A stretch of 64,000 nucleotides of DNA from Leptotrichia sp. oral taxon 223. Its GTDB lineage: Bacteria > Fusobacteriota > Fusobacteriia > Fusobacteriales > Leptotrichiaceae. Made by a program: the position numbers and the translations under genes. The notes under the pieces were generated by a model. The model had not been told where the DNA came from and searched no databases. It saw nothing but the letters and a program-made list of their open reading frames with translations. The stretch spans positions 496,001 through 560,000 of the forward strand of contig NZ_JABXYU010000001.1 of the NCBI RefSeq assembly GCF_013394795.1. The letters run 5' to 3'. Positions 1-2,013 of the stretch are shown here, one piece after another. The first letter of the stretch is position 1, and every line of letters starts with the position of its first letter.

Positions 1-660
1 TTTTAATTTCCTACCATCTATTAGGAATGATGCTCCATTATTAGTTACACAAGTACAAAGATTATCTATACCTAAATCTATTCCTAGTCCATTTTCTTTA
101 TTTAATTTCCTTTGAACTTCTTCTACTTCATAAGTATATTGAATTTCAAAGTACCTAGAATGTTGTTTGGGTATTATTCTAATTTCTTTTATTTTCTTGC
201 CTTTTAATATTGGTGGTAGTTTAATTTTAACTTCCTGATGAGTTTTCTTAAACAAATTTGAATAAGGAACTATCAGCATATCATCTTTTAATCTAACAAA
301 ACCTATAACAAGAGTTGTAAAACCATCCTTAGCAAGATATTTAGGTAATTTTATTTTTTTATTATCGTATTGACCATTCTTAGCAAGTTTTAAAAGTCCA
401 AAAAATGATTTGAAACTTTCGTCTACTTCTTTTAGAATTTGTTGAGCCATATTAGAATTTAACTTCTTATAGTTCTCACTATTTTTAAGTATTTTATAGT
501 TTTCATTATAACTTAAATACTTTTTATTTTTAAAATAGTATTGTCTAATATTATATATAGCTTCATTAGTTAAGTTCTTGGCTATATGAGATAAACATTT
601 TAAATTTCTAAACTCTTTTTTACTAAGATGTTTTACCTGTTGTTTTAATGTTAAATACAT
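1..660 (-). CDS. tnpB: TnpB (IS200/IS605 OrfB), N-terminal part, cut by window edge
   Basis: An open frame of 220 codons starts at ATG 658-660 behind a strong AAGGAGGTGAT ribosome binding site and reaches base 1 without a stop. The end of the visible part contains GIDLGIDNLCT, the first RuvC-like catalytic motif (DLG) of TnpB proteins; upstream is the lysine-rich N-terminal region usual for the family. TnpB is an RNA-guided DNA nuclease, ancestral to Cas12, that cuts at the donor or target site using a guide RNA from the element's right end. The RuvC II/III motifs, zinc finger and guide RNA are beyond the window. It lies directly downstream of the group I intron on the same strand. No tnpA is visible. 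Confidence 0.85.
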   Translation of the reverse strand, partial: MYLTLKQQVKHLSKKEFRNLKCLSHIAKNLTNEAIYNIRQYYFKNKKYLSYNENYKILKNSENYKKLNSNMAQQILKEVDESFKSFFGLLKLAKNGQYDNKKIKLPKYLAKDGFTTLVIGFVRLKDDMLIVPYSNLFKKTHQEVKIKLPPILKGKKIKEIRIIPKQHSRYFEIQYTYEVEEVQRKLNKENGLGIDLGIDNLCTCVTNNGASFLIDGRKLK

Positions 661-780
661 ATACAATCACCTCCTTTTCATCAGAGATATTATACCATGT
701 ATTCTACATTTTATCTGTCAAAAAAGTAATATTTTTTATTTATTTTTAAATATTTTTAAAGTTTTTAAAACCCCACAACA

Positions 781-1277
781 GTGGGAAGCGTCGTTCACAT
801 AAGTGCGCTACTACTTATGCAGTTCTCATGGCATATACTCCTTAATAAATTAAGGAGATTATCCTTGAACTTCTTGTTATCTCTAACAAGCACAGACTAT
901 ATCTTATCCATATCCTATTTCAAGGACTTAGGCGAAACCACTTCCAATACCAATCGCTTGTATTGTACTCCCCTCACGAGGGATAGTCGTTGAACTTTCC
1001 TTTTCAGGCTTAGCTGCTGATTGTCTATTATCATAATGTTTAGGATTTAACCGTGCACCATCTAGTATATTTTTTCTGCTTTCGCTACCTTCACATTTGC
1101 CTCTTATGAGTAAGATTGCTATGTTGTGGTTATACCAGCTTTAAGAGTTCCCAGCAATTCAGTTTCTTTGTTGCACGGTTTTGCTCCGTGTCTACATACA
1201 AGTTTCCCTATATGCTTACTAAAATTCTCACACAATTCATCTCGTTCCTTGCGGTGCGAGTGTTCTTGCATTATTTA
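781..1277 (-). ncRNA. Group I intron ribozyme of the IStron
   Basis: On the minus strand the conserved group I core strings occur in order: a Q/P4-like AATCAGCAGCTAAGCC at about 1007-1022, an R/P7-like GTTCAACGACTA at 983-994, and an S/P7' AAGATATAGTCT at 894-905. CGACTA of R can pair with TAGTC of S as P7. ACACGG...CCGTG near 1165-1195 could form P2, and CCCTCGTGAGGG near 971-985 is a stable hairpin. The block is less AT-rich than its surroundings and codes for nothing convincing. The ribozyme would splice the IStron out of the host transcript. The ends are approximate, and the 3' splice site lies beyond tnpB, outside the window. Confidence 0.75.
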
Positions 1278-2013
1278 ATAAAAGAGCAAGCCTAATTTGT
1301 GTTAAAAGTTCTTCTGAAAGACTGTCGTATTCACTTTCAAGTCCTTTTTCGTGTGCATAATAAGGAGGGCTGTCGTTCCAGGAACCCATTCCACCAAAAA
1401 CGTCAGAAATATCTGAGGCATAAAAAAGGAGTTTATTAATTTTGGGTAATTCAGAAAAATATATTCCATAAAAAGTTTTTTGTATATTTTCAATCTCTTC
1501 GCCATTTAAAATACTAATAGCTTTTCTAAAAATATTTCCAAAATTTTGAAAATCAATTTTATCAGCTAAAATTGCTATTCTATTCAATACATCTTTAAAA
1601 TCTTCTGTATTATCATAAAATTTAGGTTTTGCTTTTAGAGGGGGTTCCCATTCATGTTCTGTGTAAATAATGTGCCATTCATTATTGGAGTCTTCCCATT
1701 TTGGAGTAAAATAAGTAACTAATTTATTGTCAAAAAAGCAGACTATACTAGCTTGACTTATATTAGTAAAATTAAGAAAATCACTGTCTTTTATAGATAG
1801 AGGAATTAAGAACTTAATATTTTGTAATCCTCTATCAATACAATAATTAAACCATTTCTCAACACTTTTAGCCTTATATTTTTTATTATTAAAAAATACA
1901 AATTCAACTTTTTTTTCATAATATATGGGCTTATATCTAATCCTATTTCTTTTTTTCAAAGCACTTTTAGTGGCCAATACAATATTACATACTTGTGCTA
2001 TTTCTATATTCAT
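1237..2013 (-). pseudogene. Hypothetical protein gene interrupted by the IStron (5' exon)
   Basis: The frame starts at ATG 2011-2013, seven bases after GGAGG; a second ATG 15 bases upstream contains that GGAGG and is unlikely. The product reads as a soluble protein of about 245 residues. Near its end it has the distinctive stretch FGGMGSWNDSPPYY followed by a predicted helix, which then runs into non-protein-like residues (ARTLAPQGTR) where the IStron begins near 1277. The ancestral C-terminus should continue on the far side of the element, left of base 1. No function is assigned. If the intron splices, the full protein could still be made, so 'interrupted' is a DNA-level description. Confidence 0.65.

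What the first reader, a model, noticed from the sequence alone, without database searches (positions are those of the whole stretch)
1..2013. IStron inserted in a protein gene: self-splicing intron joined to tnpB
Seen: conserved group I intron core strings (Q, R and S elements, with P7 pairing possible) at about 894-1022 on the minus strand, directly followed by an IS605-type tnpB, all interrupting the 5' exon of a gene (ends near 1277). Known: IStrons combine a group I intron with tnpA/tnpB and are best known in Clostridioides. Inference: a fusobacterial IStron is present and the interrupted protein may still be made after splicing.
Basis: partly seen in the sequence, partly recalled or inferred. 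Interest (0 to 1): 0.85.

Follow-up and report, generated by a model that had tools for sequence, protein, structure and literature searches.

The report
A Leptotrichia self-splicing transposon (IStron)
A jumping gene that carries its own self-splicing intron sits inside a bacterial protein gene; this type of element is already known, but its many sister copies, one inside the only replicative helicase gene found in its genome, give unusually good sequence evidence that it is spliced out in living cells.

Summary
The finding is right. Window 1277 down to 1 is the 5' two thirds of a 1,944-base IStron that continues 667 bases left of the window (C1:495334-497277, minus strand). It has a group I intron (RF00028, 55.7 bits, cut-off 50), a tnpB gene and a 3' end GGTTCAG. 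Ten uninterrupted homologues of the host gene fix the insertion point; exact removal gives back their C-terminus. Splicing itself was not observed. Family evidence is strong: 59 clean copies in seven genomes of the genus all follow TTTAT; under a strict test 46 of 59 lie inside an open frame in sense and 0 in antisense, against 0 of 7 intron-less mini-copies. One copy splits the only replicative DnaB found in its genome. The internal guide differs with the insertion target (TTTAT/GUAAG, TTGAT/GUCAG). IStrons, including LbISt1 of Leptotrichia buccalis, are published (PMC4227781), so this is a new member of a known kind. Less expected: 27-28 copies in one genome, TnpA elements with a similar left end in two genomes, and a conserved inverted repeat that overlaps the terminal hairpin of the presumed guide RNA.

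The parts
1278..2013 (-). 5' exon of the interrupted host gene (hypothetical protein, no Pfam match at E 0.01); its last five bases TTTAT are the insertion target and the 5' splice-site pentamer
   Evidence: homologues in 10 of 12 other genus genomes, 10 of 10 uninterrupted; start codon at 2013 chosen by eye from the GGAGG upstream
1..1277 (-). IStron, bases 1-1277 of 1,944; the other 667 bases lie left of the window, C1:495334-496000
   Evidence: 59 clean copies share the ends TTTAT|TAAATA and TTCAG|
1235..1277 (-). left end of the IS200/IS605 part with its hairpin (CTCG...CGAG from 1260), lying in the loop of intron P1
   Evidence: similar left ends on TnpA elements in L108, L166, L167
1215..1219 (-). 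internal guide sequence GUAAG, can pair with 5' exon UUUAU with U.G at the splice site
873..1219 (-). group I intron catalytic core (RF00028)
   Evidence: 103 predicted pairs, 39 with two-sided changes, 3463 of 3499 cells paired
791..872 (-). P9-side hairpins ending in GUGAACGA, the kind of motif after which published IStrons carry the IS part
   Evidence: motif described in PMC4227781 section 14
742..775 (-). 5' arm of a 34-nt inverted repeat around tnpB; the 3' arm lies left of the window at C1:495358-495391
   Evidence: at least 29 of 34 paired (G-U allowed) in 58 of 59 copies; best match elsewhere in the tnpB part at most 25
1..660 (-). tnpB (415 aa), first 220 codons in the window; the rest left of base 1
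   Evidence: open frame of 400 aa or more in 50 of 59 copies, RuvC D/E/D in 50 of these 50

Best explanation
It is an IS200/IS605-type IStron without its own TnpA. Transcribed with the host gene, the RNA folds into a group I ribozyme whose guide GUAAG pairs with the target pentamer UUUAU; splicing joins the pentamer to the base after GGUUCAG and restores the host message. The long inverted repeat loops tnpB out and brings the 3' splice site to the core. TnpB, with a guide read from the 3' flank, would cut empty TTTAT sites and so help to keep the element. Movement would need a TnpA supplied from elsewhere. Shown by sequence: anatomy, ends, empty sites, covariation, location statistics, purifying selection on tnpB. 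Inferred: splicing in cells, TnpB cleavage, TnpA in trans.
For: RF00028 over cut-off. Exact empty sites. 59 of 59 clean copies after TTTAT. Strict test: 46 of 59 in sense frames, 0 antisense; mini-copies 0 of 7 in frames, Fisher P = 1e-4. In the same host frames possible antisense targets are commoner than sense ones (409 against 277). The only replicative DnaB found in G012 is split, DnaB_C positions 1-133 and 134-255 on either side; the G011 homologue shows the restored sequence. Target and guide differ together between the two element types. tnpB open in 50 of 59; median dN/dS 0.18 over 200 sampled pairs.
Against: No RNA data. Orientation is confounded: 55 of 58 IStrons and 7 of 7 mini-copies lie on the G-rich strand, as strand-specific insertion and gene-strand bias would give; against the local null (556 sense, 116 antisense sites) 46 to 0 has P about 2e-4. 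Some sites are shared between genomes, so copies are not all independent. The control has only 7 mini-copies. TnpB has no PDB relative by sequence. TnpA elements with a similar left end were seen in two of the seven genomes, not in the window's own.
Confidence: 0.93

Rival explanations
1. A dead remnant: the intron no longer splices and the host gene has simply taken a new C-terminus from the element.
For: In this copy only the last six residues differ without splicing, and the unspliced frame ends 13 codons into the element. The genome holds a single full copy.
Against: 101 of 103 consensus pairs intact in this copy and one departure from otherwise invariant columns; tnpB open, 89-95% identical to sister copies, family dN/dS 0.18.
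Confidence: 0.06
2. Sense orientation and location in genes reflect only strand-specific insertion and coding density, not splicing.
For: Strong strand bias of the copies, mini-copies included; same-strand TTTAT sites inside frames are already 83% sense (556 of 672).
Against: 0 of 7 mini-copies with the same ends lie in frames while 46 of 59 IStrons do; 0 antisense; the only replicative DnaB found in G012 is interrupted.
Confidence: 0.04

Closest known systems
LbISt1, IStron of Leptotrichia buccalis (Tourasse et al. 2014, PMC4227781, Table 1)
   Same: Group A, IS200/IS605 type, intron then TnpB, no intact TnpA, same genus
   Different: LbISt1 is 1,760 bp, one copy, TnpB nearest ISBth17. The TTGAT-type copies here (L099-L105, TnpB of up to 369 aa) may be of that type, not compared; the window's element targets TTTAT, is 1,944 bp and has a 415-aa TnpB with a different sequence
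FnISt2, IStron of Fusobacterium nucleatum (same table)
   Same: Similar size (2,045 bp), group A; whether its TnpB (nearest ISSoc6, 37%) is of the same subfamily was not compared
   Different: In a DNA search of 98 genomes of the class, long matches to this element occur only in the window's genus and one neighbouring genus
CdISt1 of Clostridioides difficile (same paper)
   Same: Layout, T-rich pentamer target, TCAG end; its splicing was shown by others as cited there
   Different: 9-24 copies per strain; here G009 has 27 clean copies, one more with an unclear left end, and six places of the TTGAT type
Zedaveinyte et al. [quoted passage not shown]
   Same: Overlap of 3' splice site and guide-RNA boundary (recalled; paper not held; only its citation was seen)
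   Different: Whether it describes the repeat/hairpin overlap seen here could not be checked

Membership tests
IStron, group A (PMC4227781) | Group I intron core | tested here: met
   RF00028 55.7 bits, cut-off 50
IStron, group A (PMC4227781) | IA2 traits: two hairpins in domain 7, three P9 helices | tested here: inconclusive
   The predicted fold has two hairpins between the R string and the P3 3' strand and several hairpins after the S string, but the P9 helices were not assigned one by one and P7, a pseudoknot, was seen only as complementary strings
IStron, group A (PMC4227781) | IS200/IS605 ORF B (TnpB) downstream of P9.2 after a GAACGA-type motif | tested here: met
IStron, group A (PMC4227781) | Insertion after TTGAT, ATTAT or TTTAT; 3' end TCAG; no target duplication | tested here: met
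   59 of 59 clean copies after TTTAT, ends TTCAG; empty sites
IStron, group A (PMC4227781) | Inverted repeat around the ORF, 6-10 bp in group A | tested here: met
   A repeat is present, but 34 nt long and AU-rich, the size described for group B
IStron, group A (PMC4227781) | Splicing of the RNA | not testable with these tools
   Only indirect evidence
TnpB RNA-guided nuclease | RuvC D/E/D | tested here: met
   50 of 50 copies with an open frame (motifs placed by recall); the E is V in the Selenomonadaceae relative
TnpB RNA-guided nuclease | Guide RNA binding and cleavage next to TTTAT | not testable with these tools
   -
Autonomous IS605 element | TnpA in the element | tested here: not met
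   No such frame in the element; the two TnpA matches of this genome lie elsewhere

The most novel reading that the evidence does not exclude
The 34-nt inverted repeat is an RNA switch between the two lives of the element. Its 3' arm ends with the 5' strand (GAACCC) of the terminal hairpin of the presumed guide RNA, so the two structures exclude each other. Pairing of the arms would favour splicing; transcripts that start or are cut within tnpB lack the 5' arm and would fold the guide-RNA hairpin instead. Whether the RNA becomes an intron or a guide would then be decided by where the transcript begins.
Probability: 0.2. Interest if true: 0.65.

Novelty: new member of a known kind. Interest (0 to 1): 0.45.

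Why it matters
It offers a high-copy natural system: dozens of closely related intron-transposons in ordinary genes, with an uninterrupted site in sister species where checked and intron-less mini-copies as controls. An insertion in the only replicative DnaB found in a genome rated 100% complete makes splicing in living cells hard to avoid. TnpA elements with a similar left end bear on how IStrons without TnpA move, a question left open in the 2014 survey, which thought supply in trans by another IStron unlikely.

Tried and rejected
Rfam scans of 64 kb and 2.5 kb gave no hit; a 551-base stretch did. The raw orientation count, 53 of 59 sense and 0 antisense with joint open stretches of 100 codons or more, was not used as the main argument after one search showed the strand bias; the stricter test replaced it. 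Reading-frame phase (16, 6, 31 for phases 0, 1, 2 against 23, 9, 21 expected; P = 0.014) was kept as weak. TnpA in trans: of 40 TnpA matches the surroundings of 24 were compared with the IStron left end (20 loci and L108; L166-L168 new); three match, in G008 and G009; none of those seen in G000, G006, G007, G011 or G012, so this explains at most part. PDB searches of TnpB found nothing. A class-wide RF00028 search failed; at family level 11 of 33 genomes match.

Dropped rows: of 61 loci for full copies (L002 and 60 fetched), L087 (left end off pattern by one base) and L096 (no 3' end) were left out, giving 59. Mini-copies: 7 of the 8 near-full ones were tested; L178, lacking its first bases, was not, and L111 had only a 3' end. 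One search used 58 IStrons, without L002. L061, L098, L116 and L091 were lost to search patterns before the 64-row alignment, of which 34 rows below 96% identity were folded. The pattern that found the guide fixed all but one of its letters, so the 57 and 8 agreements test that one letter only. NCBIfam was run on pieces of 20 of the 53 host frames; the repeats of nagB and queA were recognised by eye from shared sequence.

Full report
Observation. On the minus strand of the window RF00028 (group I intron) matches 873-1219 at 55.7 bits against a cut-off of 50. Two broader cmscan calls listed nothing. To the left lies tnpB (PF01385, PF07282), which runs out of the window; locus L002 (C1:489001-499000) shows the rest. 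To the right is the 5' part of a gene starting at 2013.

Boundaries. Homologues of the host gene were found in 11 of 13 genus genomes, the window's own included. The ten others are uninterrupted at the site; eight read CTTTTAT and two CTTTTGT there, and all ten end LALLY[SYF]VNEW. The element therefore begins after TTTAT at 1278/1277 and ends with GGTTCAG at C1:495334: 1,944 bases. Removal restores the homologues' C-terminus.

The family. A genus search gave matches in 9 of 13 genomes. Of 61 loci taken as full copies (L002 and 60 fetched), 59 had clean ends, all after TTTAT: G009 27, G012 15, G008 6, G011 4, G006 3, G007 3, G000 1 (counted, plus L002). These may be lower bounds, since 40 candidates per genome were scored. 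In 98 genomes of the class (6 candidates scored in most), long matches at high identity occur in this genus and in G078, another genus of the same family; G042 has matches of 30-54 bases. RF00028 matches 8 of 13 genomes of the genus and 11 of 33 of the family. A second type (L099-L105) follows TTGAT and has a zinc-finger-like TnpB of up to 369 aa; L106 follows TTGAT and, like L116, shows no tnpB frame. The genus name Leptotrichia rests on two short plasmid matches.

Intron structure. An alignment of 64 distinct rows, reduced to 34 below 96% identity, folds with 103 pairs; 39 pairs show two-sided changes and 3463 of 3499 cells pair. The window copy pairs at 101 of 103. The rows are related and the structure was derived from them, so these are not independent events. 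The R string of P7 is present in 33 of 34 rows and the S string in 34. The guide is GUAAG in 57 of 57 TTTAT-type rows and GUCAG in 8 of 8 TTGAT-type rows; the search pattern left only the middle letter free, and that is the letter that pairs with the T or G by which the two targets differ.

Evidence for splicing from location. Under a strict test (start codon at least five codons upstream, 100 codons or more in all), 46 of 59 IStrons lie in a frame in sense, 0 in antisense, 13 in none; of 7 mini-copies (302-320 bases, same ends, no intron core) 0 lie in a frame; Fisher P = 1e-4. TTTAT sites on the same strand in the flanks fall 556 in sense, 116 in antisense and 260 in no frame, so 46 to 0 has P about 0.827^46, or 2e-4, and 0 of 7 about 0.28^7, or 1e-4 (my arithmetic). 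The flanks contain the host genes and are not an independent null. In the host frames there are 277 further TTTAT sites in sense and 409 in antisense. Strand bias is strong for both kinds (55 of 58 and 7 of 7 on the G-rich strand) and would by itself give much of the sense orientation. Some sites are shared between genomes (nagB three times, one end of queA twice).

Host genes. NCBIfam names for 20 host pieces include replicative helicase DnaB, guanylate kinase, SmpB, QueA, NagB, RecJ, RecG, RuvB, MutL, Mfd and methylenetetrahydrofolate reductase (several pieces score below the curated cut-off, being pieces). In G012 (completeness given as 100) the DnaB_C domain is split exactly, positions 1-133 and 134-255 on the two sides; the only other match is partial (32.6 bits, positions 4-108, cut-off 27), and G009 and G011 have a like one beside an intact DnaB. 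The intact G011 sequence reads GATTTTATGCTAATTGAC across the site, as the two G012 flanks do. In G009 the guanylate kinase start codon itself would be AT|G (flanks), an inference.

TnpB. An open frame of 400 aa or more is kept in 50 of 59 copies; the D, E and D of the RuvC motifs, placed by recall, are present in 50 of these 50; median dN/dS is 0.18 in 200 sampled pairs. Four relatives (54-66% identity) occur in MAGs named Selenomonadaceae, Mollicutes and Synergistaceae; of the four loci only the first has a group I intron hit (62.6 bits). It too follows TTTAT, has GTAAG and lies in frame with its host (162 and 349 open codons). The relative on a Finegoldia magna plasmid has what looks like the 3' half of the intron before it (by eye; no Rfam hit); those on a Butyrivibrio plasmid and a viral contig have no intron hit. 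Further plasmid relatives were not examined.

Transposase. The element has no TnpA. TnpA genes occur in 10 of 13 genomes, 40 matches. Of the 24 examined, three have a left end like the IStron's after TTTAT: L108 in G008 (36 of 40 bases), L166 and L167 in G009 (83% and 85% over 41). None of those examined in the other five IStron-bearing genomes does. The 2014 survey judged supply in trans by another IStron unlikely; a separate TnpA element was not discussed in the parts I read. This is a lead, not a demonstration.

Inverted repeat. Arms at element 503-536 and 1887-1920 pair at 29 or more of 34 positions (G-U allowed) in 58 of 59 copies, mean 32.1 over all 59; the best pairing of the 3' arm elsewhere in the tnpB part is at most 25. 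Group A repeats are described as 6-10 bp, group B as 15-34 bp and AU-rich; this element is group A by target and ends but has the long AU-rich repeat. The 3' arm overlaps the 5' strand of the terminal hairpin (window copy folded alone, z = -2.3). That the two structures share bases is plain from the sequence; that this is regulatory is my inference.

Literature. Seen: PMC4227781 outline, sections 14, 15, 20 and passages; PMC1924603 passages; PMC12558985 and PMC11870625 passages. Zedaveinyte et al. 2024 is known to me by recall and by its citation (not held). A search for 'IStron' with 'Leptotrichia' found only PMC4227781; searches gave listings. The library holds open-licence papers only.

Verdict. 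A real, probably working IStron: known kind, new member. The interest lies in the family as a test bed rather than in this copy.

Noticed in passing
L107, L109, L110, L112-L115 (302-320 bases): Mini-copies with the IStron left end, the stretch upstream of tnpB and the 3' end but no intron core; six of seven begin TTTAT|GAAATA instead of TTTAT|TAAATA. Likely deletion derivatives.
   Followed up: partly
L175 about 1421-1465; L176 about 2652-2696: Micro-elements of about 45 bases in which the left-end hairpin runs straight into GTGGGAGGTTCAG, after TTTAT.
   Followed up: no
L106, L116: Related introns without a tnpB frame, beside a gene piece reading IDASHPYA (a cobalamin-pathway reductase by recall), in two genomes.
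   Followed up: no
L187 (Finegoldia magna plasmid pFMC, NC_010371.1): What looks like the 3' half of the intron stands before a related TnpB; where the 5' half should be there is a near copy of the downstream flank.
   Followed up: no
L165 (Synergistaceae MAG): Relative of the TnpB with no intron hit and nearly the same left-end hairpin after TTTAT; possibly kin of the IS that captured the intron.
   Followed up: no
L041, L048, L042, L076: Four copies in what reads as queA in four genomes (G009, G007, G012, G006) at three positions; L041 named by NCBIfam, the others by eye.
   Followed up: no
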